Assembly (NCBI RefSeq): GCF_020164495.1
Contig: NZ_JAIQYZ010000001.1
Span: 1,054,001 to 1,118,000, forward strand
DNA length: 64,000 bases
Direction of reading: 5' to 3'
From: Psychroflexus lacisalsi
GTDB lineage: Bacteria > Bacteroidota > Bacteroidia > Flavobacteriales > Flavobacteriaceae
Below, piece after piece: positions 28,033 through 43,372 of this stretch. The notes beneath the pieces were generated by a model, which saw nothing but the letters and a program-made list of their open reading frames with translations, was not told the DNA's origin and did no database searches. Each line of letters opens with the position of its first letter. The first letter of the stretch is position 1. Both the position numbers and the translations under genes were made by a program.

Positions 28033-29769
28033 ATGTCATTTTCTTCAAAAGTTTTTAGCCTTACAATGTCAGTAATGATTTTTTGTTCCATGTTTTCATT
28101 TGCCCAAGCTGACAGAGAAGCAGAGGGTCTCAATTTTGCTTCCAGATCTGAAGTCATAGCACAAAACGGTATGGTAGCTACCAGTCATCCATTAGCTACC
28201 CAAATCGGTCTGGATATTTTGAAAAAAGGGGGTAATGCCATTGATGCTGCTATTGCTGCCAATGCTGCTACAGGACTTATGGAACCGACTGGCAACGGGA
28301 TAGGAGGCGATTTGTTTGCAATTATTTGGCATGAGAAAAGTCAGAAGTTATATGCCATCAATGCCAGTGGGCGATCGCCTCAGAATTTATCTTATGAAAG
28401 TTTGATGAGTGAATTAGATAAAATGGATTCAAAAAGCATTCCTCCTTACCATTTACTTTCCGTCTCTGTTCCAGGAGCGGTAGATGGCTGGTTTGAGCTG
28501 CACAAAAAATTTGGATCCTTACCCATGTCGGAGATCTTAAAATCACCAATTGAATATGCGGAAAACGGATTTCCAGTTACTGAAGCGATATCCTACAGAT
28601 GGAGAAATAGTGTTCCATTTTTAAAATCGCAGCCCGGTGCCTTTAAAACTACATTCACCATTGACGGGGAATGCCCAAAGAAAGGAGAAATCTTCAAAAA
28701 TCCTGATTTGGGCAACACTTTGCGCCTTCTGGCTAAAAACGGAAGAGATGCTTTTTATAAAGGGGAAATAGCCAAAAAAATAGACCAATGGATGGTAGAA
28801 AATGATGGCTATTTGCGTTTTGAGGATTTTGAAAATCATAAGTCAGAATGGATTGAACCGGTTAGCACTAATTATAGAGGTTATGATGTGTACCAAGTAG
28901 GAGGGAACGTTCAGGGTACCGCTGTGTTGCAAATGCTGAACATTTTGGAAGGCTATGATTTAAAATCGATGGGCTATGGAACTGTTGAAACTTTACATGC
29001 TTTTATAGAAACTAAAAAATTGGTTTATGAAGATAGAGCTAAGCATTACGCAGATCCTGGTTTTCAGGATGTGCCATATGATATTTTACTTTCAAAAGAA
29101 TATGCCACTCAGCGAAGACAACTTATTGGTGAAACCGCGATGAGCGACATCAGTACAGGTGTTGAAGTGATCGAAAATGGTGATACTGTTTATTTAACGA
29201 CTGCCGACGGGGAAGGTAATATGGTGTCTTTAATTCAAAGTAACTTTAGAGGCATGGGAACAGGCTTTGTAGTGCCTGGACTAGGGTTTAGTTTTCAAAA
29301 CCGAGGAGAGTTGTTTTCAACCGACCTTCAACATCCCAATGTCTATGAGCCAGGAAAGCGACCTTTTCACACTATCATTCCTGGTTTTGTTATGAAAGAT
29401 GGTAAGCCGTTTTTCAGTTATGGTAATATGGGAGGAGCCTATCAACCTATTGGTCATGTGAGTATTCTAACCAACATTATTGATTTTGGAATGAATATCC
29501 AGGAAGCTGGAGATGCGTCACGCTGGGATCATTCCGGTTCTTCTGAACCAACCGGGAAAGTCACAGACCAATTAAATTCATCAGGGCAGGTCAACCTGGA
29601 ATCTGGAATTCCTTATGAAGTGGTTCGTCAACTCAGAGCTAAAGGACACAAGGTTGAGGTTGGGAATAGCTTTTTCGGAAGATACCAGGGTATTATGCGC
29701 AATTACGATAAAGACCTTTATTATGGCGCTTCAGAATCGAGAGTCGATGGTCAAGCTGCAGGATATTAA
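28033..29769 (+). CDS. ggt: Gamma-glutamyltransferase, exported
   Basis: 578 aa Ntn hydrolase that cleaves or transfers gamma-glutamyl groups from glutathione and related amides in the periplasm. Signal peptide about 1-25 (SMFSFAQ). Signatures: GMVATSHPLATQIGLDILKKGGNAIDAAIAANA and GNGIGGDLFAIIW. The likely nucleophile of the self-cleaved small subunit is Thr385 in NGDTVYLTTADGEGNMVSL. FSYGNMGGAYQPIGHV is the usual GG region. No gene is close enough for an operon, but it precedes the amine/omega-amino-acid cluster and could in principle handle gamma-glutamyl intermediates outside the cell. Confidence 0.93.
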   Translation: MSFSSKVFSLTMSVMIFCSMFSFAQADREAEGLNFASRSEVIAQNGMVATSHPLATQIGLDILKKGGNAIDAAIAANAATGLMEPTGNGIGGDLFAIIWHEKSQKLYAINASGRSPQNLSYESLMSELDKMDSKSIPPYHLLSVSVPGAVDGWFELHKKFGSLPMSEILKSPIEYAENGFPVTEAISYRWRNSVPFLKSQPGAFKTTFTIDGECPKKGEIFKNPDLGNTLRLLAKNGRDAFYKGEIAKKIDQWMVENDGYLRFEDFENHKSEWIEPVSTNYRGYDVYQVGGNVQGTAVLQMLNILEGYDLKSMGYGTVETLHAFIETKKLVYEDRAKHYADPGFQDVPYDILLSKEYATQRRQLIGETAMSDISTGVEVIENGDTVYLTTADGEGNMVSLIQSNFRGMGTGFVVPGLGFSFQNRGELFSTDLQHPNVYEPGKRPFHTIIPGFVMKDGKPFFSYGNMGGAYQPIGHVSILTNIIDFGMNIQEAGDASRWDHSGSSEPTGKVTDQLNSSGQVNLESGIPYEVVRQLRAKGHKVEVGNSFFGRYQGIMRNYDKDLYYGASESRVDGQAAGY

Positions 29770-30996: not shown

Positions 30997-32346
30997 ATGA
31001 CAAAAATGCATTCAAAATCTCAAGAACTCCTTGACAGGAGAAAAAATATAGTTGCCAATGGTGTTGGGGTTTTTAATACTGCTACGGTAAGTGATGCAAA
31101 AGGAGCTATTATAACAGATGCCGATGGCAATGAATTAATTGATTTTGCAGGAGGTATAGGAGTAGTAAATGCAGGCCATTGTCCTGCTCCAGTAGTCGAA
31201 GCCATTCGCGAACAAGCTGGTAAATATCTGCACACCAGTTTTAATGTAGTGACTTATGAGCCATACATTGAATTGTGTGAAGAACTTGCAGAAATTCTTC
31301 CTCACGGAGATCATACTAAGGTCATGCTCATTAGTACTGGTGCAGAAGCGGTAGAAAATGCCATCAAGATTGCCAGACAAGCAACTCAAAGACCTGCGGT
31401 CTTGTGTTTTAGTGAGGCTTATCATGGTAGAACTTTGATGGGGATGACCTTGACAAGTAAAGTAAATTATAAATTCTCTTGTGGTCCATTCGCTCCTGAA
31501 GTTTACAGATTGCCATTTCCAAATTTCTACAAGAATGCAGGAAACCTTTCTATGGATGAATTTGTAGAAAGTGAGTTAAGAAGACTTTACGATAGTGCAA
31601 AGACTTTAGTTGATATCAATACGGTAGCAGCTATCATCGTTGAACCCATACAAGGTGAAGGCGGCTTCAATCCGATTCCGAAAAAGTATTTAGAAGGTCT
31701 ACGTGCCTTTTGTGATGAATATGGTGTGATGTTAATTTTTGACGAAATACAAAGTGGGTTTTGTAGAACAGGTCATTGGGCAAGCTGGCAACATTATGGC
31801 GTACAGCCAGATTTAAGTACGTATGCCAAATCCATGGGATCTGGTTTACCGATCGCAGCAGTTGTGGGTAAAGCCAAAATAATGGATGCTGCTTTACCAG
31901 GAACCATAGGAGGAACCTATATTGGCAGCCCGGTTTGTTGTGCTGCTGCTTTAGCAACCATAAAATATATGAAAGAAATCAATCTTAATGAAAGAGCCAT
32001 ACACATTGGCGAAATCGTAATGCAGCGCATGAAGGATTTACAAGAAGAGGTTTCAGAAATAGGGGAAGTAAGAGGAATTGGTGCTATGATTGGCATCGAA
32101 TTTATTAAAGATAAAAACCCAAACTCTCCACACTCCGAGTTGTGTGATCAAATTGTCAAGGGGTGTGCACAGGACGGCCTTATTCTTTTAAGCGCTGGCA
32201 CTTATAAAAATGTTATTCGTATACTTTCCCCTCTGGTGATCACAGACGAAGAATTGTACAAAGGACTGGACATTTTGGAAAACAACATTTTGAAAAACAC
32301 CCGAAGCACGACTCAAAAAGTCTTGAGTTGGTTCAAAAAAAATTAA
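30997..32346 (+). CDS. gabT: Class III omega-aminotransferase (4-aminobutyrate aminotransferase-like)
   Basis: 449 aa PLP enzyme moving an amino group between an omega-amine such as GABA and 2-oxoglutarate. Motifs: GNELIDFAGGIGVVNAGHCP, MLISTGAEAVENAIKIARQ (PLP phosphate loop), FSEAYHGRTLMGMTLTSK, IVEPIQGEGGF, LIFDEIQSGFCRTG and the Schiff-base Lys278 in YAKSMGSGLPIAAVVGK. It resembles GabT/PuuE. A second ATG nine bases downstream is an alternative start. It is the first gene of an eight-gene co-directional cluster; a nitrilase gene follows after 61 bases. The symbol is by similarity; the natural substrate may be another omega-amino compound. Confidence 0.88.
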   Translation: MTKMHSKSQELLDRRKNIVANGVGVFNTATVSDAKGAIITDADGNELIDFAGGIGVVNAGHCPAPVVEAIREQAGKYLHTSFNVVTYEPYIELCEELAEILPHGDHTKVMLISTGAEAVENAIKIARQATQRPAVLCFSEAYHGRTLMGMTLTSKVNYKFSCGPFAPEVYRLPFPNFYKNAGNLSMDEFVESELRRLYDSAKTLVDINTVAAIIVEPIQGEGGFNPIPKKYLEGLRAFCDEYGVMLIFDEIQSGFCRTGHWASWQHYGVQPDLSTYAKSMGSGLPIAAVVGKAKIMDAALPGTIGGTYIGSPVCCAAALATIKYMKEINLNERAIHIGEIVMQRMKDLQEEVSEIGEVRGIGAMIGIEFIKDKNPNSPHSELCDQIVKGCAQDGLILLSAGTYKNVIRILSPLVITDEELYKGLDILENNILKNTRSTTQKVLSWFKKN

Positions 32347-32407
32347 TAATATTTCAATAAATTGGTTATTCATAATGAATAGCCATTCACAATTAATAAA
32401 TCAATAA

Positions 32408-33346
32408 ATGAGACCATTTGCAATAGCAGGAATACAAATGAAAGTTTCAGCTGTTAATTCTAATGTAGAATTGATGAAGTTGAAATTAGATATAACAATG
32501 AGCCTTTATCCATGGGTAGAAATGGTTGTCTTTAGTGAGTTATGTGGTCACGGACCTCTTACTCATACTGCAACAGAAATACCAGGATCATTTGAGGAAG
32601 AAATGCAAGCCATGGCCAAAAAACACGGCGTTTGGCTACTTCCAGGAACAATTTTTGAAAAAAGTGAAGGGCATATTTACAATACGGCAACAGTTATTAA
32701 TCCACAAGGGGAAGTTGTAACTAGATACAGAAAAATGTTCCCTTTTTATCCTTACGAAGTCGGCGTAACACCAGGTTCTGGTTTTTGCGTTTTCGATGTA
32801 CCAGGGGTAGCCAAATTTGGTTTATCCGTTTGTTACGACATGTGGTTTCCAGAAACAGTAAGAACACTGGCTGTTATGGGTGCAGAAGTAATCATACATC
32901 CTACCATGACAGGGACTATAGATAGAGAAATAGAATTATCTATTGTTCGAGCCATGGCAGCTTGTAACCAGTGCTACTTTTTCGACGTTAATGGACTCGA
33001 GTCTGGAGGTAATGGAAAATCTTTGGTTTGTGGACCAGATGGACGAGTCATTTATCAAGCCGAAGGAAATGAAGAGATTTTTCCTATAGAATTGAATATT
33101 GAACGTGTAAAACGAAGTCGAGAATTAGGTGTCCTAAGATTGGGACAACCTCTGAAAAGTTTCAGAGACCATATTGGTGAATTCAATATTTATCAACAAG
33201 GTGTTCAATTGCCTTATTTGGATTCGTTAGGACCCTTAATAAAGCCTACAAAGATGGATACTTTAGCAAAACTGAAGTTACAAGAACACGAATACGAGAA
33301 GAATAATCCTACACAATCACAAGGATATAAAGGATTTACAAAATAA
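32408..33346 (+). CDS. Carbon-nitrogen hydrolase (nitrilase superfamily amidase)
   Basis: 312 aa, cytosolic. The Glu-Lys-Cys triad is intact: Glu44 in VFSELCGHGP, Lys109 in RYRKMFPFYPYE, Cys142 in SVCYDMWFPETVR. Members hydrolyse amides (N-carbamoylputrescine, omega-amides, simple aliphatic amides). The sequence does not settle which. It sits between the aminotransferase and the VOC/decarboxylase genes (12 bases to the next), so a role in releasing an amide-protected amine or acid is likely by context. Weaker similarity after residue 270 may be a family-specific tail. Confidence 0.87.
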   Translation: MRPFAIAGIQMKVSAVNSNVELMKLKLDITMSLYPWVEMVVFSELCGHGPLTHTATEIPGSFEEEMQAMAKKHGVWLLPGTIFEKSEGHIYNTATVINPQGEVVTRYRKMFPFYPYEVGVTPGSGFCVFDVPGVAKFGLSVCYDMWFPETVRTLAVMGAEVIIHPTMTGTIDREIELSIVRAMAACNQCYFFDVNGLESGGNGKSLVCGPDGRVIYQAEGNEEIFPIELNIERVKRSRELGVLRLGQPLKSFRDHIGEFNIYQQGVQLPYLDSLGPLIKPTKMDTLAKLKLQEHEYEKNNPTQSQGYKGFTK

Positions 33347-33358
33347 AAAACTAAAGAT

Positions 33359-33763
33359 ATGGGCGGTACAGCACCGAAACACAAGAAAAAAGAAAGTATG
33401 AAGGATGCAGTTAGTTGGTTTGAAATACCAGCGCTTAATTTTCAACAGTCAGTTAATTTTTACAATCAAATTTTTGGTATCGATATGGAAACCAAGCTTG
33501 ATGATAATTATGCTATGGCATTTTTTCCTGTCAAAAACGGTGTTGGAGGTTCCATAGTTGCTGGGCCGGGGTCGACTCCAGGTGAGGCGGGTCCATTGGT
33601 ATATCTTAATGCAGGTAAAGACTTAAATCCAGTTCTTAATCAAGTAGAGCTAGCTGGTGGTCGAATTGTTATGCCAAAGACTTTTATCAGTGATGATGCT
33701 GGATACTTTGCTATTTTTATAGATCCAGAAGGAAATAAGTTAGCTCTGCATTCAAGTAAATAA
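33359..33763 (+). CDS. VOC (glyoxalase/bleomycin-resistance fold) protein
   Basis: 134 aa, one VOC unit of two beta-alpha-beta-beta-beta modules: VSWFEIPALNFQQSVNFYNQIFGIDM opens the fold and GYFAIFIDPEGNKLALHS closes it, with the usual Glu in DPEGN. There is a basic leader of 13 residues; an internal ATG at 33398 (MKDAVSWF) is an equally good start. It is packed between the nitrilase (12 bases) and decarboxylase (3 bases) genes. The role is unknown; VOC proteins bind metals or small ligands, and it could act on a reactive carbonyl arising in the pathway. Confidence 0.8.
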   Translation: MGGTAPKHKKKESMKDAVSWFEIPALNFQQSVNFYNQIFGIDMETKLDDNYAMAFFPVKNGVGGSIVAGPGSTPGEAGPLVYLNAGKDLNPVLNQVELAGGRIVMPKTFISDDAGYFAIFIDPEGNKLALHSSK

Positions 33764-33766
33764 ACT

Positions 33767-36514
33767 ATGATAAAAAACAAGCAAAAGAGTTCGAGTCATT
33801 ATAATATCAATCAGTTAAGGTTAGAATCCTGGAACGAGCTTAAAAGTGAATGTTCCCATCTGGAAACTTTGAAACGAAATACTCCTGATAGTAAAAAGCA
33901 AAAGGAATTTGTTAAATCCCTTTTTAAAAAAATTGAAACTGTTGAAAGTTATTTTGCATTACCAGGGATTTCAAAAATGGGAATGCTCCAGGATATGCTC
34001 GAAAGAAACGAGTTTACATCTTTAGCACATAAAATTACTGAAATCACTAAGTTATTGGTCAGTGATAGATACCGAAGCAATCCAGATATTTTTGATGATG
34101 AGGATACAAGTGGTGAGTTGGTTGAGGTTTCAGGCAATAGTGATGGGAAAACTAAAAATTACTTTGAAGTATTATTTGTTGAAGACATCTCCCTACAGGA
34201 GGAACAAAAATTAAAATCAGATTTAAATGAAGTCGCAACTGACAACGATCAATTTGATTATAAAATAATTGTTCAAAGAAGTTTTCAGGATGCATTGATT
34301 GCCTTGTATTTCAACAGTAATATTCAAGCAGTAGTTATTCGTTATGCACCTCCTTTTAGGTCAAAAAAAATCACATCGGTTATAGAGCCCTTTATACAAA
34401 ATGTTTTAAGCTTAGATATGGCTTCCAAGCCCGAAAGTGAACTTGGGCCTTTACTTGGTCGACTTGTGAAAAAATTCAGACCCGAATTGGATACCTATTA
34501 CGTAACCGATACATCGCTTGGAAACTTAAAAGATAATACGCTCAAAACTTTCAATCGAATATTTTATAGAGCAGAAGATGTTCAGGAGTTACATTTGACG
34601 ATATTGAGGGGTATTTATGAACGTTACCAAACTCCTTTTTTCACAGCAGTAAAAGAATACAGTAAAAAACCGACAGGCGTTTTTCACGCCATGCCTATTT
34701 CACGAGGAAATTCCGTTTTTAAATCCAGATGGATCAATGATTTTGGTAAGTTCTATGGCCGTAATATGTTTTTGGCAGAAACCTCTTCTACTAAAGGCGG
34801 ATTGGATTCTTTATTACAACCTACGGGGACTCTAAAAAAAGCACAAGAAATGGCAAGTGATGCTTACGGCTCACTCAATACCTTTTTTGTCACTAATGGC
34901 ACGTCAACTTCCAATAAAATTGTTGTACAAGCTCTGGTGAAGCCAGGTGATGTTATTCTGATTGATAGAGATTGCCATAAATCTCATCATTACGGACTCG
35001 TTTTGGCTGGTGCATATCCAGTTTATCTGGATTCATATCCTATTGAGAAATACTCTATGTACGGTGCCGTTCCTTTGGAACAGATGAAAGAAAAATTACT
35101 TCAACTTAAAGAAGCTGGCCGGCTTAATCTTGTTAAGATGTTATTGTTGACCAATTGTACTTTCGACGGGTTGGTTTATAACGTTGAAAAGGTGATGGAA
35201 GAAATTCTTGCTATCAAACCGGACATTATTTTTCTTTGGGATGAAGCCTGGTTTGCTTTTGCCGGATTCACATATAATTACAAGCAAAGATCGGGAATGT
35301 TTGTAGCCAATAAACTTCATAAGAAATACAAAAGCTCAAAATATAGGATAGAATACGAAGAACACATTAAAAATCTTAAGAAAGGAGAAATACCTAAACT
35401 TCCAGACCCAGATCAAGTTCGAATACGTGTATATTCTACACAAAGTACACATAAAACCTTGAGCAGTTTTAGACAAGGTTCTATGATTCATGTTTGGGAT
35501 GAAGACTTTAGAAAGAAAAGTCAAAATACCTTTATGGAAGCCTATATGACTCATAGTTCTACCTCTCCAAATTACCAGATTTTAGCTTCCTTGGATGCAG
35601 GAAGAAGACAGGTTCAATTTGAAGGTTACGAACTCGTTGAAAAGAGCATTGAACTGGCGATGGTATTGAGAGCTAAGATTAATGATCATCCAAAACTGAA
35701 TAAATACTTTGATGTACTAACCATAGGTGATTTTATCCCAGACAAATACAGAGAATCTGGTTTAGCAGAATATTACAAGCCTAATGTTGGCTGGAACCGA
35801 ATGGAAACGGCTTGGAAAGAGGATGAGTTTGTATTAGATCCTACCAAAATCACCTTGCACATTGGAAAAACAGGAGTCGATGGCGATACCTTCAAGAATA
35901 AGTATCTCATGGATAAGTTTAGTATTCAGATCAATAAAACGTCAAGGAATACGGTTTTATTCATGACCAATATTGGAACCACAAGGAGTAGTATAACTTA
36001 CCTCTATAATGCATTGCTAAAAATTGCAGATGAGTTGGATGCAGAGCAATTGTCTCATTCCTCAAAAGAGCAAACTATACTAAAAAATAGAGTCAGTTCT
36101 TTAACAAAAGATTTCCCACCATTACCAGACTTCAGTTACTTCCATAGTTCATTTCAGGCGGTTCCTGGTGTACCAGGGGGGAACATTAGAGGAGCATTTA
36201 CTTTGGCTTATGATGAGGAAAATTACGAATATGTTCCACTCGAGGAATGTTTACCATCCATGAGTGAAGGTAGAACATTAGTGGCTTCTTCATTTATTAT
36301 ACCGTATCCTCCAGGATTTCCAGTACTCGTTCCTGGTCAGGTTGTAAGTAAGGAAATTATTCATTTCTTAACAGCTTTGGATGTTTCTGAAATTCATGGC
36401 TATCAACCTGAATTAGGACTACGTGTGTTCAAGGATAATATTTTGAACAGACAAAAAACAGTATCTTCTATGGGAAGCAATGGAAGTGTCAAAAAAAAGA
36501 ATTTAACTAAATAA
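33767..36514 (+). CDS. Orn/Lys/Arg-type decarboxylase (PLP, fold I), large form
   Basis: 915 aa. Residues 1-270 form an extended N-terminal region, including a wing-like part (FEVLFVEDISLQEEQKLKSD). The PLP domain has FVTNGTSTSNKIVVQALVKP, IDRDCHKSHHYGLVLAGA, LFLWDEAWFAFAGF written as FLWDEAWFAFAGF, and Lys563 in STQSTHKTLSSFRQGS. The C-terminal domain holds IIPYPPGFPVLVPGQ. The class removes the carboxyl group of ornithine, lysine or arginine to give putrescine, cadaverine or agmatine. The sequence alone does not identify the amino acid. It is longer than the usual 700-755 aa because of the N-terminal extension. Three bases separate it from the VOC gene and seven from the ATP-grasp gene. Confidence 0.9.
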   Translation: MIKNKQKSSSHYNINQLRLESWNELKSECSHLETLKRNTPDSKKQKEFVKSLFKKIETVESYFALPGISKMGMLQDMLERNEFTSLAHKITEITKLLVSDRYRSNPDIFDDEDTSGELVEVSGNSDGKTKNYFEVLFVEDISLQEEQKLKSDLNEVATDNDQFDYKIIVQRSFQDALIALYFNSNIQAVVIRYAPPFRSKKITSVIEPFIQNVLSLDMASKPESELGPLLGRLVKKFRPELDTYYVTDTSLGNLKDNTLKTFNRIFYRAEDVQELHLTILRGIYERYQTPFFTAVKEYSKKPTGVFHAMPISRGNSVFKSRWINDFGKFYGRNMFLAETSSTKGGLDSLLQPTGTLKKAQEMASDAYGSLNTFFVTNGTSTSNKIVVQALVKPGDVILIDRDCHKSHHYGLVLAGAYPVYLDSYPIEKYSMYGAVPLEQMKEKLLQLKEAGRLNLVKMLLLTNCTFDGLVYNVEKVMEEILAIKPDIIFLWDEAWFAFAGFTYNYKQRSGMFVANKLHKKYKSSKYRIEYEEHIKNLKKGEIPKLPDPDQVRIRVYSTQSTHKTLSSFRQGSMIHVWDEDFRKKSQNTFMEAYMTHSSTSPNYQILASLDAGRRQVQFEGYELVEKSIELAMVLRAKINDHPKLNKYFDVLTIGDFIPDKYRESGLAEYYKPNVGWNRMETAWKEDEFVLDPTKITLHIGKTGVDGDTFKNKYLMDKFSIQINKTSRNTVLFMTNIGTTRSSITYLYNALLKIADELDAEQLSHSSKEQTILKNRVSSLTKDFPPLPDFSYFHSSFQAVPGVPGGNIRGAFTLAYDEENYEYVPLEECLPSMSEGRTLVASSFIIPYPPGFPVLVPGQVVSKEIIHFLTALDVSEIHGYQPELGLRVFKDNILNRQKTVSSMGSNGSVKKKNLTK

Positions 36515-36521
36515 AAGCATT

Positions 36522-38168
36522 ATGAAATCAAACGATAAAAATACATCAACAAAAAAAGAAGATCAGACCCCTAAGCATGCTACTGTTACAGGAAAGGATG
36601 AGACAAAAATTCCACGCCGGGGGAAGTCGAATAAAACCAAAAAAGTATCTGTTGCAAAAAAATCTGGAGCTAAACCTATAGCGGCTACAATACCTAAAAA
36701 ACGGGGAAGACCTAAAAAAGGAGAGCTAAAAGGGGTTTCAGATATTCGTAGGGCATTTCATAAAAATGAAGAACCACTTTATTTTATTAGTGCCACCAAT
36801 TTTAATCTACTTGGTGCAGACGAATGGATCAAAGGCTTTCGATTTATCACTTATATCGAATGTTTTGATGGTCAACATCCCAACGTATTTTCCCCTAAGA
36901 ATGAAATTCCACATGATGATTTTGAAGGAATAGAAGACATCAATAATTACTTGCTTCAGCATCCAGAAGTTCAGGATTACATCAAAACGCGTTCTGTAGA
37001 TGGAAGAGCTGGAAAAGCGATGTTCTTGATGTTCAATGAAGAAACAGAGCGCTTGGCAGAAAAACTTGGTTTAGAAATCATGTTTCCTAAGGCAGAAATG
37101 CGAACCTTTCTAGACAATAAAGTTAATACCAATCGTATTGCAGAAAAAGCAGGAGTCGCTTGTGTTCCTTATGTTCTTTCTAAGGTAAATGATTATGAGC
37201 ATTTAAGTGAAATCTCTAAACATTTAGGTAATCAACTGGTAATTCAAACTCCATTTGGAGATTCTGGGCATACCACCTTCTTTATATCCAACGAAGAAGA
37301 ATATGATGAATATGCAGAAGAAATTGAAGCTGAAGAGGAAGTAAAAATCATGAAGCGTATCCGTTGTAAAGGAACCGCTATTGAAGCGTGTGTAACGCGA
37401 CACGGAACTATTGTTGCTCCATTGATGACCGAGTTGGTTGGATTTGAAGAGCTGACGCCTTATGAAGGAGGATGGTGCGGTAATGAAATCTATCCAGATG
37501 CGTTTACACCAGAACTAAGAAAAAAAGCTGCAGAATTTACTCAGCTTTTTGGAAATCAATTGCGTGAAGAAGGCTATAAGGGTTACTTTGAACTTGATTT
37601 TTTAATTGATCAGGACAATGGAGAAATCTATTTAGGTGAATTGAATCCTAGAGTCACTGGAGCGAGTTCAATTACAAATCATGCAGTATTTGCCCTAGCT
37701 GATGCGCCATTATTTGTATTTCATATCTTAGAATGGATGAATTTAGATTATGCATTGGATGTAGAGGAAATCAACAAACGTTGGGCTAACCAAGATAATA
37801 TTGATGGTTGGAGCCAACTGATTGTAAAACACACAAGCGATACGATAGAGTATGTTACCGAATCTGCCAAATCTGGTATTTGGAGATTGTACGATACAGG
37901 TCATATTCAATTTGACAGAATGGATACCCACAGACGTGCAGTGCAAAATGAAGGAGAAGCCTTTTTTATGAGAATTGCTAAAAAAGGAGATTACCTTTAT
38001 GAAGGAGCAGATATGGGAATTTTGGTAACTCGAGGTCGTATGATGACTGATGACTTTAAACTAAACGATAGAGCAAAATCTTGGATAAAAGCGATTCGTA
38101 ATCAATTTTCTTCTGTTATGGTAGAAGATAAGCGAAAGTCAAATTTATCTGGATCACTTACAAAATAA
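36522..38168 (+). CDS. ATP-grasp ligase with AT-hook-like basic N-terminus
   Basis: 548 aa. The first 70 residues are Lys/Arg-rich and disordered and contain PKKRGRPKKGE (about 58-68), which matches the minor-groove-binding AT-hook core. The rest is a biotin-carboxylase-like ATP-grasp fold: FLDNKVNTNRIAEKAGVACVPYV, LVIQTPFGDSGHTTFFI (Gln where a Lys often contacts ATP), FELDFLIDQDNGEIYLGELNPRVTGASS with metal ligands Glu/Asn in GELNPR (372-377). Such enzymes join a carboxylate to an amine via an acyl phosphate. It directly follows the decarboxylase (7 bases), which suggests ligation of its amine product. A hairpin lies just after the stop. Confidence 0.85.
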   Translation: MKSNDKNTSTKKEDQTPKHATVTGKDETKIPRRGKSNKTKKVSVAKKSGAKPIAATIPKKRGRPKKGELKGVSDIRRAFHKNEEPLYFISATNFNLLGADEWIKGFRFITYIECFDGQHPNVFSPKNEIPHDDFEGIEDINNYLLQHPEVQDYIKTRSVDGRAGKAMFLMFNEETERLAEKLGLEIMFPKAEMRTFLDNKVNTNRIAEKAGVACVPYVLSKVNDYEHLSEISKHLGNQLVIQTPFGDSGHTTFFISNEEEYDEYAEEIEAEEEVKIMKRIRCKGTAIEACVTRHGTIVAPLMTELVGFEELTPYEGGWCGNEIYPDAFTPELRKKAAEFTQLFGNQLREEGYKGYFELDFLIDQDNGEIYLGELNPRVTGASSITNHAVFALADAPLFVFHILEWMNLDYALDVEEINKRWANQDNIDGWSQLIVKHTSDTIEYVTESAKSGIWRLYDTGHIQFDRMDTHRRAVQNEGEAFFMRIAKKGDYLYEGADMGILVTRGRMMTDDFKLNDRAKSWIKAIRNQFSSVMVEDKRKSNLSGSLTK

Positions 38169-38174
38169 CTAGCT

Positions 38175-38203
38175 AAGCCTATCAAAACAATGTTGATAGG
38201 CTT
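38175..38203 (+). terminator. Hairpin within the amine cluster (terminator or attenuator)
   Basis: Perfect 11-bp stem AAGCCTATCAA/TTGATAGGCTT with a 7-nt loop, starting six bases after the ATP-grasp stop. The T-run after it is weak (GACTTTCTATT), so it may reduce rather than end transcription into the C45 gene. Confidence 0.65.
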
Positions 38204-38232
38204 GACTTTCTATTAAAAATTCAAATCTCTAT

Positions 38233-39375
38233 ATGCAGATTAATTTTAAGACGATTTCAGAACCAAGTTTACCAGGCTTAAAATGGCAAAACTTGTTCTT
38301 TACGCATTGGGATGCTTATAAAAAGTGGTTAATCGAAAATGAAAAACAAGTTCCAACTTCAGATTTAAAAACTTCTCAATCAGCTCTCAGGATACACATG
38401 CCCGAATTGTGGGACACTTACGAGCGACTTTGTCAACTTGTAGATTCAGACAAATTAGCTGCTAAATTTCTGACGGGATATCAGCCTCCATTTTACGTCA
38501 GTGGATGCTCTAATGCTATACTAGAAGGTGACGATTTTCAACTTGTTCGTAATTATGATCATCATCCAGACTTGTTTGAAGGTGTTCAAATACTTACAAA
38601 ATGGAATCAGAAAAGAGTTATTGCAGTTAGTGATTGTTTGATTGGGGTTCTGGACGGAATCAATGATGATGGTTTAGTCGTTTCCTTAACTTTTGGAGGT
38701 AGAAAAGTTACAGGGCAAGGTTTTGGAATCCCTTTTATTTTAAGATATATTCTTGAGTTTTGCTCTAATGTGGAAGAGGCGATTGAAGTTTTAATCAGGA
38801 TTCCTTCCCATATGGCTTATAACGTGAGTATCGCTGATAAGTCGGGGAGTTATAAAACTGTGAGGGTGGCGCCAGGAGAAAAAGCTGTAATAACAAATTC
38901 AGCGTATACCACTAATCATCAAAAGAAAGTAGACTGGCCAGAAAATGCTAGATTTAATAAAACAATAGAACGTTCCCTGTTTTTAAGTCATTTACTTGAA
39001 GAACAAGATCTATCAACAGAAAATTTAGTCTCTGCCTTTCTAAGAAAACCTCTTTACAATGATCTTTTTAAAGAAGGCTTTGGCACTTTATTTACCGCGT
39101 CATATTTTCCAAAATCAGGAGAGGTGGACTTGCACTGGCCACACCAAAAAATAAGTCAAAGTTTTGATAATTTTGAAGAGAAAGAAGAAACCATCACCCT
39201 GCATCAGAGAAGGAAAAAGCGATCCAAAAATAATCAGTTTTCAATTCCTTATCAGGGTTATACTGCCAAAACTATAACCTATTCTAACCCCATTTTAAAT
39301 AAAGCAGTTTCCAAAAAGCCCAAAGAAATCACAAACGAGTTTTTAAAAGAAGTTTGGTCAGTTACAAAATCCTGA
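38233..39375 (+). CDS. C45-type Ntn acyltransferase/amidohydrolase
   Basis: 380 aa. Related to acyl-CoA:6-aminopenicillanate acyltransferase (peptidase family C45). These are made as precursors and cut before an internal Cys that becomes the N-terminal nucleophile: Gly91-Cys92 in FYVSGCSNAILEGDDF. Downstream LVRNYDHHPDLFEG, DGINDDGLVVSLTFGGR and ITNSAYT are family hallmarks. They hydrolyse or exchange amide-linked acyl groups. Following a ligase and decarboxylase, deacylation of an amide intermediate is the natural guess. The C-terminal 80 residues are basic and less conserved in appearance. No signal peptide, so cytosolic. Confidence 0.83.
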   Translation: MQINFKTISEPSLPGLKWQNLFFTHWDAYKKWLIENEKQVPTSDLKTSQSALRIHMPELWDTYERLCQLVDSDKLAAKFLTGYQPPFYVSGCSNAILEGDDFQLVRNYDHHPDLFEGVQILTKWNQKRVIAVSDCLIGVLDGINDDGLVVSLTFGGRKVTGQGFGIPFILRYILEFCSNVEEAIEVLIRIPSHMAYNVSIADKSGSYKTVRVAPGEKAVITNSAYTTNHQKKVDWPENARFNKTIERSLFLSHLLEEQDLSTENLVSAFLRKPLYNDLFKEGFGTLFTASYFPKSGEVDLHWPHQKISQSFDNFEEKEETITLHQRRKKRSKNNQFSIPYQGYTAKTITYSNPILNKAVSKKPKEITNEFLKEVWSVTKS

Positions 39376-39445
39376 TCATGTCTTTTAATACCAAGACCTC
39401 ATATTCAATTTCTATATTGAATGAATCTCATAAACATATACACAA

Positions 39446-40804
39446 ATGAAATTTCAAAGTAAAAACCCCTTCAATGGTGACCATATCGCCGAATATACTA
39501 CACTTACAACTGAAGAACTCAATGGAAAACTTGAAGCTTCAGCCGAAGCATTTAAACATTGGAAAACAACTCCTTTAATTGAAAGAACCGACCTTCTTAA
39601 AAAGGCTGGACAAATACTTAGAGATAATTTAGATGAATACGCAGAGATTATAACCTTAGAAATGGGTAAACCTATTTCAGAATCAAAATCTGAAGTCAAT
39701 AAATGTGCTTGGGTGTGTGATTACTATTCAGAACATGCGGAAGAGTTTCTTGCTATCGAAACCATTGAAACTGATGCTTCTAGAAGTTTTGTTCGTCACG
39801 ACCCTATCGGTGCAGTTTTCGCCGTCATGCCTTGGAATTTTCCATTTTGGCAAGTATTTCGTTTTGCAGCACCAACCTTGACAGCGGGAAATACGGGACT
39901 TTTAAAACATGCCCCAAATGTCTTTGGCTGTGCTCAAAAAATAGAAGAGGTCTTTTTAAAAGCAGGTTACCCTAAAGGCGTTTTTCAGAACTTGATTGTT
40001 CATCACGATGAGACTGAAAAAATTGTATCACACGATACCGTTCGGGCTATAACTTTAACCGGTAGTGAAGCTGCAGGCTCTGCTGTTTCACAAATCGCTA
40101 GTAAATACATTAAAAAAAGTCTGTTGGAACTTGGAGGAAGTAATTCGTTTATTGTTTTAGACGATGCAGACTTAGATAAAGTCGTAAATACGGCGGTTCA
40201 GGCTAGAATGATGAATAGTGGTCAGAGTTGTATTGCAGCTAAACGCTTTATTGTAATGGATTCCATTTATGACGAGTTTGTATCCAGATTTATTGAAAAA
40301 GCAAAACAATTAAAAGTGGGGGATCCCATTTCAGAAGATACTCAAATTGGAACTTTGGCACGTAAAGATTTGGCAGATAAACTTCAAAAGCAGGTGCAGG
40401 ACTCCATAAAACAAGGGGCTAAATTATTACTTGGAGGGAAACAAAATGAATGCTTTCATGAGCCAACAGTTTTAGGAGAAGTAACATCCGAAATGGCTGC
40501 TTTTAAGGAAGAAACCTTCGGTCCACTGGCCGCAATGATCAAGGTAAAATCTGCAGATGAAGCTTTTGAATTGGCTGAACAATCTAAGTTTGGGCTTGGA
40601 TTAAGCGTCTTTACCAAAGATATTGATAAAGCTTTAAGCTATTCTGATAAAGTAAGTGATGGCGCATTTTTCGTCAATGAACTGGTGAAATCTGATCCCC
40701 GCTTGCCTTTTGGAGGAACAAAGACCTCTGGTTTCGGACGTGAATTAGCCAAAGATGGCATAATGGAATTTATTAATCGGAAGGCAGTTTATGTAAAAGC
40801 ATAA
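39446..40804 (+). CDS. Aldehyde dehydrogenase, succinate-semialdehyde type
   Basis: 452 aa ALDH. PWNFPFWQVFRFAAPTL (NAD site), catalytic Glu228 in LLELGGSNSFIVLDDADL and nucleophile Cys262 in MNSGQSCIAAKRFIV are intact, followed by KEETFGPLAAM. Overall it resembles the GabD/Sad group that oxidises succinate semialdehyde to succinate, although related enzymes take 4-aminobutyraldehyde and similar omega-aldehydes. With the upstream GabT-like aminotransferase it would complete GABA conversion to succinate. Confidence 0.88.
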   Translation: MKFQSKNPFNGDHIAEYTTLTTEELNGKLEASAEAFKHWKTTPLIERTDLLKKAGQILRDNLDEYAEIITLEMGKPISESKSEVNKCAWVCDYYSEHAEEFLAIETIETDASRSFVRHDPIGAVFAVMPWNFPFWQVFRFAAPTLTAGNTGLLKHAPNVFGCAQKIEEVFLKAGYPKGVFQNLIVHHDETEKIVSHDTVRAITLTGSEAAGSAVSQIASKYIKKSLLELGGSNSFIVLDDADLDKVVNTAVQARMMNSGQSCIAAKRFIVMDSIYDEFVSRFIEKAKQLKVGDPISEDTQIGTLARKDLADKLQKQVQDSIKQGAKLLLGGKQNECFHEPTVLGEVTSEMAAFKEETFGPLAAMIKVKSADEAFELAEQSKFGLGLSVFTKDIDKALSYSDKVSDGAFFVNELVKSDPRLPFGGTKTSGFGRELAKDGIMEFINRKAVYVKA

Positions 40805-40842
40805 TAGAATATTTTAATAATGTTTTTGCATTGAGTAGTACC

Positions 40843-41370
40843 ATGAAAAAAGTAATTATTGCCTCAAAAAATCCAGTAAAGCTTCAAGCTGCCAAAAATG
40901 GTTTGGAAAGGATGTTTCCCAGTCAGGAATTCGAGTGTATCGGAGTATCTGTGCCTTCCAATGTATCCGATCAGCCTATGAGCGACGATGAGACTTTTCG
41001 TGGAGCAAAAAACAGAGCTGATAACGCTTCGACTACACATGAAGGCGATGACTTTTATATTGGAATTGAAGGGGGGATAGAAATTACTGATGGTGAAATG
41101 CAGGCTTTTGCCTGGATAGTTATTAAGTCGCATAACAAGTACGGTAAATCCAGGACAGGTACATTTTTTCTTCCCAAACAAGTAGTTAACCTGATCAAGG
41201 AAGGTAAGGAGCTAGGTGAAGCAGATGATATTGTTTTTAAACGTGACAATTCCAAACAAAAAAGCGGAGCCGTTGGAATTTTGACAGGAGATATTATTGA
41301 TAGAACTGCCTATTATACAGAGGCTGTTATTTTAGCCTTGATTCCTTTTAAGAATGCGGATTTATATTAA
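40843..41370 (+). CDS. yjjX: Inosine/xanthosine triphosphatase YjjX (DUF84)
   Basis: 175 aa. ATG 40843 (MKKVIIASKNPVKLQAAKNGLERMF) is chosen over the upstream TTG at 40831 because it starts at the first strand of the family. The signatures SVPSNVSDQPMSDDETFRGAKNRA and FYIGIEGGIEI, then GAVGILTGDIIDRTAYYTEAV, define the YjjX/Maf-like fold, which dephosphorylates ITP and XTP to keep them out of RNA and DNA. It lies 38 bases after the dehydrogenase and closes the cluster; its link to the amine genes may be coincidental. Confidence 0.9.
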   Translation: MKKVIIASKNPVKLQAAKNGLERMFPSQEFECIGVSVPSNVSDQPMSDDETFRGAKNRADNASTTHEGDDFYIGIEGGIEITDGEMQAFAWIVIKSHNKYGKSRTGTFFLPKQVVNLIKEGKELGEADDIVFKRDNSKQKSGAVGILTGDIIDRTAYYTEAVILALIPFKNADLY

Positions 41371-41482: not shown

Positions 41483-41487
41483 TATTG

Positions 41488-41886
41488 TGGAGTCGGGGAG
41501 ACTCGAACTCCCGTCCAAACAAGCAATTCAACAGCCTTCTACACGCTTAGTTTTCTCTTGGGTTTTCGAGACAAGACTGGCTGAAAACCACCTACCTTGC
41601 CCTTATCCTCGATTAAGTTTCACCAACGCATCAAGGCCCTGCGTTAGCTATATTTACTTTACCGGTGCCTCTGTTGCAAACGCCGTAAATCAAGGCTTTT
41701 GCGAGACATCTTAGCTCCCAACCTTGTTGGGATTAAGCATATCCTACTGTGATTCGGATTATGCAGCCAAGGCGTAGTTATCTTCGCCGTTTAAAAAAGT
41801 GTGAAACATGAGATTTACGAGCTATATCCCAGCGCTCGGCGTGCTTACCATCCAATTGGTCTTGCTGTCAAAACCAAATCGACCCC
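41488..41886 (-). ncRNA. ssrA: Transfer-messenger RNA
   Basis: Rescues stalled ribosomes. The acceptor stem pairs GGGGTCG at the 5' end (41880-41886) with CGACTCC at the 3' end (41489-41495), plus discriminator A at 41488. CCA is not encoded and must be added. The T-arm reads GGGAGTTCGAGTCTCCC. The tag reading frame is on the minus strand at 41788-41759 and encodes GEDNYALAA, a variant of the Bacteroidota tag. Length of about 399 nt fits. It is one-piece, not permuted. Confidence 0.97.
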
Positions 41887-42048: not shown

Positions 42049-42166
42049 AGGCTGGTCAATAACTTATGGTTAAATCATAAAACCAGTGTTTCCCTCCCAA
42101 AACAGGAATGCAAAAGTAGATATAAATACTATATTTGAAGTGAAAAATCATCTTAAAATTAGAGGT

Positions 42167-43372
42167 ATGAAAATTGGACTTATTAAAGAGCGCAAAACCC
42201 CACCAGACCGTAGGGTTGTCTTCTCACCTCAGAAAGCAGCGGAAGTCCAAAGTCAGTTTAAGGATTTACAATTTGTCGTAGAACCATCGGACATTCGTAT
42301 ATTTTCAGACGAAGCTTATCTAAATCAAGGTTTGGAGCTTTCAGAAAATATATCTAATTGTGATGTTTTATTAGGTGTCAAAGAAGTTCCTGAAGAGGCT
42401 TTGATTCCCAACACCTCTTATTTTTTCTTTTCGCATACCATCAAAAAACAACCTTACAACAGAGACTTGCTCAAAGCTGTTTTGGATAAAAATATTCAAC
42501 TTTACGACCATGAAGTTATCACGGCGGCAAGTGGCAACCGACTTATTGGCTTTGGTCGCTATGCGGGCTTGGTAGGCGCATACAATGGTTTTAGAGCTTT
42601 AGGACTACGAGATCAACTTTTCGAACTACCCAAAGTGGATAATCTTGCAGATTTGGATGCTTTAAAGCAAGAACTTGACAACATAAAAATTCCTAACCTC
42701 AAAATTTGTCTTTCAGGACTTGGAAAAGTCGCCAGAGGAGCTAAAGAAATTCTAGATTACCTTCAAATTAAAGAAGTTGGAGTAGAGGTGTACCTCAATT
42801 CTACTTTTGAAGAACCAGTGTATGCTGTCATTGATGTTTTGGATTACAACAAGCGCAAGGACGGCCAACCAGGAAAAATTTCAGAATTTTTCTTAGATCC
42901 TACTCCTTACGAATCAGACTTTATGCGTTTCGCTAAAGTCACTGATTATTTTATTGCTGGACATTTTTATGGTGACAATGCGCCATTTTTATTTTCCAGA
43001 GAAGATGCCAAACGATCAGATTTCAATATCAATCTCATAGCCGATATCAGTTGTGATATTGACGGGCCAGTAGCATCTACAATTAGACCATCTACTATAG
43101 CCAATCCATTCTATGGATACGATCCTCAAACCGAATCTGAAGTTGCTTTTGATACTAAAAACGCTATTACTGTAATGGCTGTCGATAACTTACCTTGTGA
43201 ATTACCTAAAGATGCCAGCGAAGGTTTTGGAGAAATGTTTGCCGAGCATGTCATTCCAGCTTTTTTTAATGGAGATTTAGATGGAATTTTAGAACGAGCC
43301 AGAATGACTAAAGATGGTAATTTAACGCCTAAATATGCTTATTTACAAGACTTCGTTGAAGACAATGAATAA
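42167..43372 (+). CDS. Lysine-ketoglutarate-reductase/AlaDH-like NAD(P) dehydrogenase
   Basis: 401 aa from ATG 42167 (MKIGLIKERKTPPDRRVVFSP); the frame extends 81 bases upstream without a better start. The opening and YFFFSHTIKKQPYNRDLL followed by IQLYDHEVI match the lysine:2-oxoglutarate reductase/saccharopine-dehydrogenase branch of the alanine-dehydrogenase N-terminal fold. CLSGLGKVARGAKEIL is a Rossmann loop, and DISCDIDGPVASTIRPSTIANPFYGYD is a family signature. The natural reaction is probably reductive condensation of an amino acid with a keto acid, or the reverse; uncertain. Single gene opposite tmRNA. Confidence 0.75.
   Translation: MKIGLIKERKTPPDRRVVFSPQKAAEVQSQFKDLQFVVEPSDIRIFSDEAYLNQGLELSENISNCDVLLGVKEVPEEALIPNTSYFFFSHTIKKQPYNRDLLKAVLDKNIQLYDHEVITAASGNRLIGFGRYAGLVGAYNGFRALGLRDQLFELPKVDNLADLDALKQELDNIKIPNLKICLSGLGKVARGAKEILDYLQIKEVGVEVYLNSTFEEPVYAVIDVLDYNKRKDGQPGKISEFFLDPTPYESDFMRFAKVTDYFIAGHFYGDNAPFLFSREDAKRSDFNINLIADISCDIDGPVASTIRPSTIANPFYGYDPQTESEVAFDTKNAITVMAVDNLPCELPKDASEGFGEMFAEHVIPAFFNGDLDGILERARMTKDGNLTPKYAYLQDFVEDNE

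What the first reader, a model, noticed from the sequence alone, without database searches (positions are those of the whole stretch)
30997..41370. Eight-gene amine/omega-amino-acid cluster that may be an analogue of the gamma-glutamyl-putrescine pathway
Seen directly: co-directional genes with gaps of 61, 12, 3, 7, 64, 70 and 38 bases encode a GabT/PuuE-like aminotransferase, nitrilase-type amidase, VOC protein, large Orn/Lys/Arg decarboxylase, ATP-grasp ligase, C45 Ntn acyltransferase/hydrolase, SSADH-type dehydrogenase and YjjX, all with catalytic residues intact. Known: in E. coli putrescine is protected by PuuA (glutamine-synthetase fold), oxidised by PuuB and PuuC, freed by PuuD and passed to PuuE and GabD. 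Inference: decarboxylase makes the diamine, the ATP-grasp enzyme attaches an acyl or gamma-glutamyl group, aminotransferase and dehydrogenase oxidise the free end, and the nitrilase or C45 enzyme releases GABA or a homologue. Ligase and hydrolase would be non-homologous replacements. A biosynthetic role (amide-linked polyamine or N-acyl product) is an alternative. The hairpin at 38175-38203 may split the unit in two.
Basis: partly seen in the sequence, partly recalled or inferred. Interest (0 to 1): 0.78.

Follow-up and report, generated by a model that had tools for sequence, protein, structure and literature searches.

The report
Conserved ligase–decarboxylase–amidase operon ending in GABA
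This is a real but uncharacterised gene cluster, found in scattered bacteria of several phyla, that probably masks an amino group with a removable cap so that a nitrogen-rich amino acid can be broken down through GABA to succinate; it gives a testable context for a family of decarboxylases whose substrate is unknown.

Summary
The genes are real and at the stated coordinates. In 80 loci of other genomes, mostly Bacteroidota, the order aminotransferase–nitrilase–(VOC)–decarboxylase–ATP-grasp–(C45)–(aldehyde dehydrogenase) holds for the genes visible on the cluster strand; 38 of 80 show all seven. The genes come and go together: of 247 Bacteroidota genomes, ATP-grasp and C45 are in the same 4, the decarboxylase in those plus one at a contig edge. 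YjjX does not belong (3 of 67). Nitrilase is nearly constant; C45 and dehydrogenase are each in 52 of 67. On three proteobacterial plasmids ATP-grasp and C45 sit with a racemase/DadA/2-ketoarginine-decarboxylase module expected to turn arginine or ornithine into GABA. The decarboxylase is a full-length homologue of M. tuberculosis Rv2531c (structure solved, activity unknown). It has Asn (42 of 42) where E. coli CadA, LdcC and SpeF have Glu, and Arg four residues on (41 of 42), so free lysine or ornithine is an unlikely substrate. Best reading: an amine-masking catabolic route, as in Puu but with unrelated ligase and hydrolase, the cap perhaps added before decarboxylation. Cap (glutamate favoured) and every reaction are inferred. 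Rivals: glutamate decarboxylation, Puu order, biosynthesis.

The parts
30997..32346 (+). AT: class-III aminotransferase, GABA-transaminase type
   Evidence: PF00202; TIGR00700 486 bits, below its cut-off of 506.65; the equivalent in L029 scores 511
32408..33346 (+). NIT: nitrilase-superfamily amidase, proposed amide (mask) hydrolase
   Evidence: PF00795; E44, K109, C142 invariant in 15 of 15; 58 of 60 loci
33359..33763 (+). VOC-fold small protein, role unknown
   Evidence: PF00903; 50 of 60 loci
33767..36514 (+). DC: Rv2531c-type PLP decarboxylase, 915 aa
   Evidence: PF01276; residues 13-898 match 9n0n, E 1e-244; N723 42 of 42, R727 41 of 42; 60 of 60 loci
36522..38168 (+). ATPG: ATP-grasp ligase, NF005096/PRK06524
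   Evidence: 829 bits over cut-off 684; PurK/biotin carboxylase/PylC/GARS-like fold, tied Z about 22
38174..38204 (+). 12-bp RNA hairpin between ATPG and C45; possible attenuator or processing site, absent from three relatives
   Evidence: z -4.86; terminator-like scan
38233..39375 (+). C45: Ntn autoproteolytic acyltransferase/amidohydrolase (isopenicillin N acyltransferase-like fold), accessory
   Evidence: NF040521 150>85; Z 29.4 to 2x1d; C92 invariant in 42 of 42; 52 of 67 loci
39446..40804 (+). SSADH/Sad-type aldehyde dehydrogenase
   Evidence: PF00171; best NCBIfam hit PRK09406 517 bits, below cut-off 730; an aldehyde dehydrogenase in 52 of 67 loci
40843..41370 (+). YjjX, inosine/xanthosine triphosphatase; neighbour, not part of the conserved unit
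   Evidence: NF003459 201>175; 3 of 67 loci

Best explanation
A catabolic operon that carries an arginine/ornithine-type amino acid to GABA and on to succinate with its side-chain amine masked. Proposed steps: (1) the ATP-grasp enzyme joins a carboxylic acid (glutamate favoured) to the side-chain amine, probably at the amino-acid stage; (2) the Rv2531c-type decarboxylase removes the alpha-carboxyl of this capped amino acid; (3) the aminotransferase turns the freed amine into an aldehyde that cannot cyclise because the other amine is capped; (4) the dehydrogenase oxidises it to capped GABA; (5) the nitrilase (C45 as helper or alternative) removes the cap; (6) the same aminotransferase and dehydrogenase take GABA to succinate. 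Shown: gene families, order, co-occurrence, the active-site residues, the two alternative modules. Inferred: every reaction, the acyl donor and the order of steps 1 and 2.
For: Order kept among the genes seen in 80 of 80 loci; DC 60 of 60, AT and NIT each 58 of 60. Shared presence: ATPG 4, C45 the same 4 and DC 5 of 247 Bacteroidota genomes (hypergeometric P 3e-8 for the DC-ATPG overlap, not corrected for kinship); in the genus ATPG 9 of 27, DC the same 9, AT and NIT the same 8. A ligase plus C-N hydrolase around an aminotransferase and aldehyde dehydrogenase is the logic of amine masking. End point GABA: nine cluster ATs of other loci score 478-511 against the GABA-transaminase cut-off of 506.65, one of nine passing (L029), the window's 486; the L067 dehydrogenase passes the SSADH cut-off (724>646). 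Module swap: in three plasmid loci (L005, L090, L092) ATPG and C45 sit in one gene run with SpeB, 2-ketoarginine decarboxylase (737>500 in L005), an aldehyde dehydrogenase, DadA and a racemase (ornithine-racemase-like, 393 of 480 bits, in L005), with NIT and Lrp divergent nearby; this too would remove the alpha carbon and end at GABA. DC pocket: Asn where CadA/LdcC/SpeF have Glu, Arg where AdiA has Asp, which fits a capped or non-cationic side chain. Glutamate genes recur nearby by annotation or Pfam: a glutamate-dehydrogenase-type gene, a glutamate-synthase-type gene, a sodium:dicarboxylate symporter.
Against: No family model names a substrate for ATPG, NIT or C45. AT and the dehydrogenase must each act twice. 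The dehydrogenase is not near the cluster in 15 of 67 loci and was not sought elsewhere in those genomes; of four neighbouring aldehyde dehydrogenases scanned, only L067 passes an SSADH cut-off, and L071, L068 and L005 score best on lactaldehyde or betaine-aldehyde models, below cut-off. The role of the DC residue is recalled, and AdiA (arginine) also lacks the Glu, so free arginine is not excluded. Sister decarboxylases beside aspartate:alanine antiporters have the same Asn/Arg without ATPG beside them, so the pocket need not mean a capped substrate. Partial sets exist: G270 has VOC-DC-ATPG but no AT or NIT found; G192 has DC without ATPG or C45 found, at a contig edge; L069 lacks AT and NIT; two R. 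leguminosarum plasmids show DC-ATPG-C45 with no NIT, AT or SSADH annotated beside them; Cupriavidus necator N-1 has NIT-ATPG-C45 without DC.
Confidence: 0.37

Rival explanations
1. The decarboxylase is a glutamate (acidic amino acid) decarboxylase in the OKR fold; with the aminotransferase and dehydrogenase it forms a GABA shunt, and ATP-grasp, nitrilase and C45 make and break a GABA- or glutamate-amide.
For: Asn/Arg in the distal pocket; sister decarboxylases beside aspartate:alanine antiporters and aspartate 4-decarboxylase (antiporters alone); symporter and glutamate-dehydrogenase-type genes near plasmid clusters; GABA-type AT and, in L067, SSADH.
Against: Does not explain why the same ligase and hydrolases sit with an arginine/ornithine-to-GABA module in L005, L090 and L092, nor what the amide is for.
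Confidence: 0.22
2. True Puu order: the decarboxylase makes putrescine, cadaverine or agmatine from the free amino acid, and the ATP-grasp enzyme then gamma-glutamylates the amine.
For: Same kinds of step; OKR fold; ligase next to the decarboxylase; GABA end point. AdiA also lacks the Glu, so agmatine stays possible.
Against: The Glu at the CadA/LdcC/SpeF site is absent in 42 of 42; Arg replaces AdiA's Asp; no amine oxidase among the conserved genes.
Confidence: 0.17
3. Biosynthesis: ATP-grasp and C45 build an amide-linked product (a GABA- or polyamine-containing dipeptide or osmolyte), and nitrilase, AT and SSADH recycle it.
For: C45 has the isopenicillin N acyltransferase-like fold, and that enzyme transfers acyl groups (recalled); sparse, accessory distribution; rhizobial copies show only DC-ATPG-C45 beside ABC transporters, peptide-type by annotation.
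Against: C45 is dispensable; the Bacteroidota unit carries a catabolic-type AT, often with SSADH, and the transporters have solute-binding proteins, as importers do.
Confidence: 0.1
4. Amide route: the decarboxylase acts on glutamine or citrulline, the nitrilase hydrolyses 4-aminobutyramide or N-carbamoylputrescine (compare 5-aminovaleramide in the Dav lysine pathway, recalled), and the ligase has a separate task.
For: NIT's best though weak family hits are N-carbamoylputrescine amidase, an archaeal nitrilase and formamidase (about 82 bits, cut-offs 406-500); Asn in the decarboxylase pocket could bind an amide.
Against: Leaves the ATP-grasp enzyme, the constant neighbour of the decarboxylase in the cluster loci, without a role.
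Confidence: 0.09

Closest known systems
Gamma-glutamylputrescine (Puu) pathway of E. coli
   Same: Logic of capping an amine, oxidising the free end, uncapping to GABA, then transaminase and SSADH (pathway recalled)
   Different: Ligase is ATP-grasp, not glutamine-synthetase type; hydrolase is nitrilase/C45, not a class-I amidotransferase; no PuuB oxidase in the cluster; cap possibly added before decarboxylation
Rv2531c, probable amino acid decarboxylase of M. tuberculosis (PDB 9n0n/9n0o)
   Same: Homologous over residues 13-898 of 915, E 1e-244, same Asn in the distal pocket
   Different: Activity not clarified (passages seen of PMC12910592); Ile where this family has Arg727; its genomic context was not examined here
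2-Ketoarginine (AruI/KauB/GbuA-type, names recalled) arginine catabolism
   Same: In Shinella-type loci genes of this kind share a gene run with the same ATP-grasp and C45 and would end at GABA
   Different: Uses racemase, DadA and a keto-acid decarboxylase (NF005712) instead of the PLP decarboxylase and aminotransferase
DavA-DavT-DavD lysine catabolism (recalled)
   Same: Nitrilase-type amidase, GabT-like aminotransferase and SSADH-like dehydrogenase in series
   Different: C5 chain, lysine monooxygenase start, no ATP-dependent ligase
Isopenicillin N acyltransferase / C45 family
   Same: Fold of C45, Z 29.4 over 303 residues at 3.3 A
   Different: 12% identity; substrate unknown

Membership tests
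Puu pathway | Glutamine-synthetase-type gamma-glutamyl-putrescine ligase (PuuA) | tested here: not met
   The cluster ligase is ATP-grasp NF005096 with a PurK/biotin carboxylase-like fold; no GS family hit among the ten proteins scanned; the rest of the genome was not searched
Puu pathway | FAD amine oxidase (PuuB) | tested here: not met
   None among the cluster proteins; the rest of the genome was not searched for one
Puu pathway | Class-I amidotransferase hydrolase (PuuD) | tested here: not met
   The cluster hydrolases are CN_hydrolase and C45; the rest of the genome was not searched
Puu pathway | GABA transaminase (PuuE/GabT) | tested here: inconclusive
   Window AT: TIGR00700 486 against 506.65; of ten relatives scanned L029 (511) and the separately placed Roseobacter GabT in L004 (543) pass; none passes NF005376, cut-off 676
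Puu pathway | Gamma-glutamyl amide intermediates | not testable with these tools
   Needs assay
OKR (Orn/Lys/Arg) decarboxylase fold | PF01276 with PLP lysine and Asp | tested here: met
   260.7 bits; K563 and D492 in 42 of 42
Lysine/ornithine decarboxylases (CadA, LdcC, SpeF) | Glu at CadA 526 / SpeF 532 (role recalled) | tested here: not met
   Asn723 in 42 of 42; Glu in CadA, LdcC and SpeF, Thr in AdiA
Rv2531c-type decarboxylases | Full-length homology including the N-terminal domain | tested here: met
   Residues 13-898 align, E 1e-244
NF005096/PRK06524 'biotin carboxylase' | Score over the curated cut-off | tested here: met
   829.1>684
Biotin carboxylase (function) | Carboxylates biotin; partner carrier and transferase subunits | not tested
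   All listed acetyl-CoA and pyruvate carboxylase models score far under their cut-offs; no carrier or transferase gene in the annotated neighbourhoods listed
C45 autoproteolytic acyltransferase/hydrolase | NF040521 score and Ntn Cys | tested here: met
   150.3>85; C92 invariant in 42 of 42
GABA shunt | SSADH over the family cut-off | tested here: inconclusive
   Window enzyme below cut-off; of four others scanned, L067 passes TIGR01780 (723.6>646.35), L071, L068 and L005 do not

The most novel reading that the evidence does not exclude
A previously undescribed catabolic pathway in which the side-chain amine of ornithine (or a relative) is capped by an ATP-grasp ligase before decarboxylation, so that an Rv2531c-type enzyme is a decarboxylase of N-acyl-ornithine rather than of a free amino acid. 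This would give a first substrate class for that family, including the mycobacterial protein of known structure and unknown activity.
Probability: 0.25. Interest if true: 0.8.

Novelty: new variant of a known kind. Interest (0 to 1): 0.6.

Why it matters
A set of five to seven genes seen in the same order in Bacteroidota, Ignavibacteria, Calditrichota, Balneolaceae and a gemmatimonad (in part where contigs end), with its core on proteobacterial plasmids (next to nifHDK in one Rhizobium), has no function that I could find in print, and its ligase is annotated as 'biotin carboxylase'. Solving it would replace a probably misleading annotation, place the orphan Rv2531c-type decarboxylases in a pathway, and show whether amine masking evolved more than once from unrelated enzymes.

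Tried and rejected
YjjX as a pathway member: rejected, 3 of 67 loci. Gamma-glutamyltransferase at 28033-29769 as a partner: among the fetched loci its homologue is found in three Psychroflexus loci only (L010, L011, L073). Hairpin as a conserved unit boundary: rejected for L010, L011 and L073, where the gap is 25-29 bases. C45 as the essential releasing enzyme: rejected; none at E 1e-15 in 14 of 14 genomes searched (10 of the 15 loci counted as lacking it, plus four with shorter flanks, which had no positive genome of its own), while the same query found 4 of 247 genomes at 1e-30; the G171 copy there reads with one TAA inside the matched stretch. VOC related to E. coli YaeR next to ldcC: no meaningful match (E 2.2). 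Relatives in viral contigs: 104 pattern matches, none confirmed. Literature: searches for Rv2531c, PRK06524, SMa0682 (an S. meliloti decarboxylase name, recalled), citrulline decarboxylase and four term combinations gave no paper that, from the listings and the passages seen, describes this operon; the Rv2531c cryoEM paper PMC12329521 and a paper tried by DOI are not held. Published confirmation of the role of the distal Glu was sought (passages only) and not found, so that role stays recalled. A 232-aa ORF family in the C45 place of four loci (L028, L033, L042, L062) has no Pfam match in L028, the only one scanned. The fold search for ATPG could not separate families: its 50 rows are nearly tied.
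Full report
Observation. The eight ORFs, their coordinates and spacings are as reported. Family scans give a class-III aminotransferase (AT), a nitrilase-superfamily hydrolase (NIT), a VOC protein, an Orn/Lys/Arg-fold decarboxylase (DC), an ATP-grasp protein over the NF005096/PRK06524 cut-off (ATPG), a C45 Ntn proenzyme, an SSADH-like aldehyde dehydrogenase and YjjX. The window lies in a 3.04-Mb genome. Its genus is probably Psychroflexus: the NIT of the same-genus genome G262 and that of the genome behind L010, Psychroflexus sediminis, have the same contig coordinates and score.

Conservation. A scan of genome contigs with an ATPG alignment gave at least 552 relatives, of which the tool kept the 80 closest (L010-L089: Bacteroidota, Ignavibacteria, Calditrichota, Balneolaceae, one gemmatimonad). 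Among loci with at least 7.6 kb upstream, DC is present in 60 of 60, AT and NIT each in 58 of 60 and VOC in 50 of 60. Of the two without AT and NIT, L089 has them further upstream and L069 lacks them. Among loci with at least 4.5 kb downstream, C45 is present in 52 of 67, an aldehyde dehydrogenase in 52 of 67 and YjjX in 3 of 67; four loci lack both C45 and the dehydrogenase on that strand. Order is kept in 80 of 80, counting the + strand genes that are there: 38 loci show all seven, the rest fewer, often because contigs end; a C45 on the other strand in L059 was left out. Of 54 loci with both flanks, 41 have AT, NIT, DC, ATPG and a dehydrogenase. The dehydrogenase count includes a different aldehyde dehydrogenase type in the more distant loci.

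Co-occurrence. In three searches that drew 247 Bacteroidota genomes (same handles each time), ATPG is in 4, C45 in the same 4, and DC in those 4 plus G192, where the gene lies at a contig edge. P is about 3e-8 for the DC-ATPG overlap, not corrected for kinship (two of the four share a genus, two a family). In the genus, ATPG and DC are in the same 9 of 27 genomes, AT and NIT in the same 8. The exception, G270, has VOC-DC-ATPG on a short contig of a fragmented assembly. The genes are gained and lost largely as a unit. YjjX is a neighbour only.

Other contexts. On plasmids, NIT-DC-ATPG-C45 occurs in Roseobacter, Pseudorhodobacter and Cupriavidus oxalaticus. DC-ATPG-C45 with an ABC transporter and an amidase occurs in Rhizobium leguminosarum, in one case next to nifHDK. 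NIT-ATPG-C45 without DC, followed by a GntR/aminotransferase-type regulator, occurs in C. necator N-1. Most telling, in Shinella, Roseateles sp. XES5 and Sinorhizobium sp. RAC02, ATPG and C45 lie in one gene run with an agmatinase-family enzyme, 5-guanidino-2-oxopentanoate decarboxylase, an aldehyde dehydrogenase, DadA, a racemase and RidA, with NIT and Lrp divergent upstream. Of the Shinella copies, the keto-acid decarboxylase scores 737 bits over a cut-off of 500 and the racemase 393 against the ornithine racemase cut-off of 480. Removing the alpha carbon of arginine or ornithine by racemase, DadA and keto-acid decarboxylase does the same overall job as DC plus AT. I read this as two interchangeable modules around a constant ligase and hydrolases.

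The decarboxylase. It matches M. tuberculosis Rv2531c (PDB 9n0n/9n0o) over residues 13-898 at E 1e-244. A review states that the structural work did not clarify the activity (passages seen of PMC12910592). In my alignment of 42 sequences (the window, 32 of the 80 loci and nine plasmid copies), K563, D492 and H404 are invariant. The residue aligned with CadA E526, LdcC E526 and SpeF E532 is Asn723 in 42 of 42; R727 is present in 41 of 42, with Pro in L008. AdiA has Thr571 at the first place and Asp at the second. Rv2531c has Asn but Ile. That the Glu faces the substrate amine is recalled, not confirmed here. If so, free lysine or ornithine is an unlikely substrate, while a capped, neutral or acidic side chain is likely. 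Sister enzymes beside aspartate:alanine antiporters, in two of three loci with aspartate 4-decarboxylase, share Asn and Arg, which is the main support for the glutamate-decarboxylase rival.

Ligase and hydrolases. The ATPG model (pLDDT 71, pTM 0.72) aligns to PurK, biotin carboxylase, PylC and GAR synthetase with Z of 20.5-22.3 at 3.9-6.2 A, so it cannot separate amide ligation from N-carboxylation. C45 (pLDDT 85.5) is closest to isopenicillin N acyltransferase, Z 29.4 over 303 residues. C45 was not found in 14 of 14 genomes searched whose locus lacks it, while NIT is present in 24 of 24 cluster genomes searched (G283 has further fragment matches). So the most constant Bacteroidota set is AT, NIT, DC and ATPG, usually with a dehydrogenase, and NIT is the likely main amidase.

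End point. The window AT scores 486 bits against the GABA-transaminase cut-off of 506.65. Of ten relatives scanned, L029 (511) and the separate Roseobacter GabT (543) pass, L066 misses by 0.2 bits and the rest lie at 478-499. Of four neighbouring aldehyde dehydrogenases scanned, L067 passes the SSADH cut-off and three do not. GABA and succinate semialdehyde are the best-supported metabolites, not proven ones.

Mechanism. I favour a masked-amine route: cap (ATPG), decarboxylate (DC), transaminate (AT), oxidise (dehydrogenase), uncap (NIT, sometimes C45), then GABA to succinate with the same AT and dehydrogenase. Glutamate as the cap is suggested only by neighbours: a glutamate-dehydrogenase-type gene, a glutamate-synthase-type gene and a dicarboxylate symporter. 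Every reaction is inferred. The step order rests on the pocket change and is the least certain part.

Novelty. I found no paper describing the operon in the searches listed under Tried and rejected, in a library that lacks most subscription journals. It works like Puu but is not Puu: three defining enzymes were tested and not met in the cluster. I file it as a new variant of a known kind (amine-masking catabolism), with an outside chance of being an undescribed pathway.

Noticed in passing
window 41487-41886 (-): tmRNA gene (tag GEDNYALAA) directly downstream of YjjX.
   Followed up: no
window 28033-29769 (+): Gamma-glutamyltransferase (403>358 bits) upstream of the cluster; close homologues upstream in three Psychroflexus loci (L010, L011, L073) and in no other locus of L004-L089.
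   Followed up: partly
window 42086-43372 (+): 428-aa protein with an AlaDh/PNT N-terminal domain and no NCBIfam match; looks like a lysine or saccharopine dehydrogenase relative (recalled).
   Followed up: no
L096, L098, L099: A sister group of the decarboxylase (42-44% identity) sits beside aspartate:alanine antiporters, in L096 and L098 with aspartate 4-decarboxylase: possibly an unrecognised acid-resistance decarboxylase/antiporter system.
   Followed up: partly
L101 1-16738: In Rhizobium leguminosarum Vaf10 the DC-ATPG-C45-transporter-amidase run lies next to nifHDK on a conjugative plasmid.
   Followed up: no
L102 1615-8699: An Ensifer adhaerens nitrilase 44% identical to NIT lies near another 5-guanidino-2-oxopentanoate decarboxylase, an aldehyde dehydrogenase and an amine-type ABC transporter.
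   Followed up: no
L028 11454-12152: Unknown 232-aa protein between ATPG and the dehydrogenase; family members in the same place in L033, L042 and L062; no Pfam match for the L028 copy.
   Followed up: partly
L005 11779-13566: 595-aa protein with an ornithine-racemase-like N-terminal part and a weak arginase-like stretch at 459-569: a possible racemase-ureohydrolase fusion.
   Followed up: no
L104 2878-3267: In E. coli K-12 a VOC protein gene (yaeR) also follows a lysine decarboxylase gene (ldcC); it is not detectably related to the VOC protein here.
   Followed up: partly
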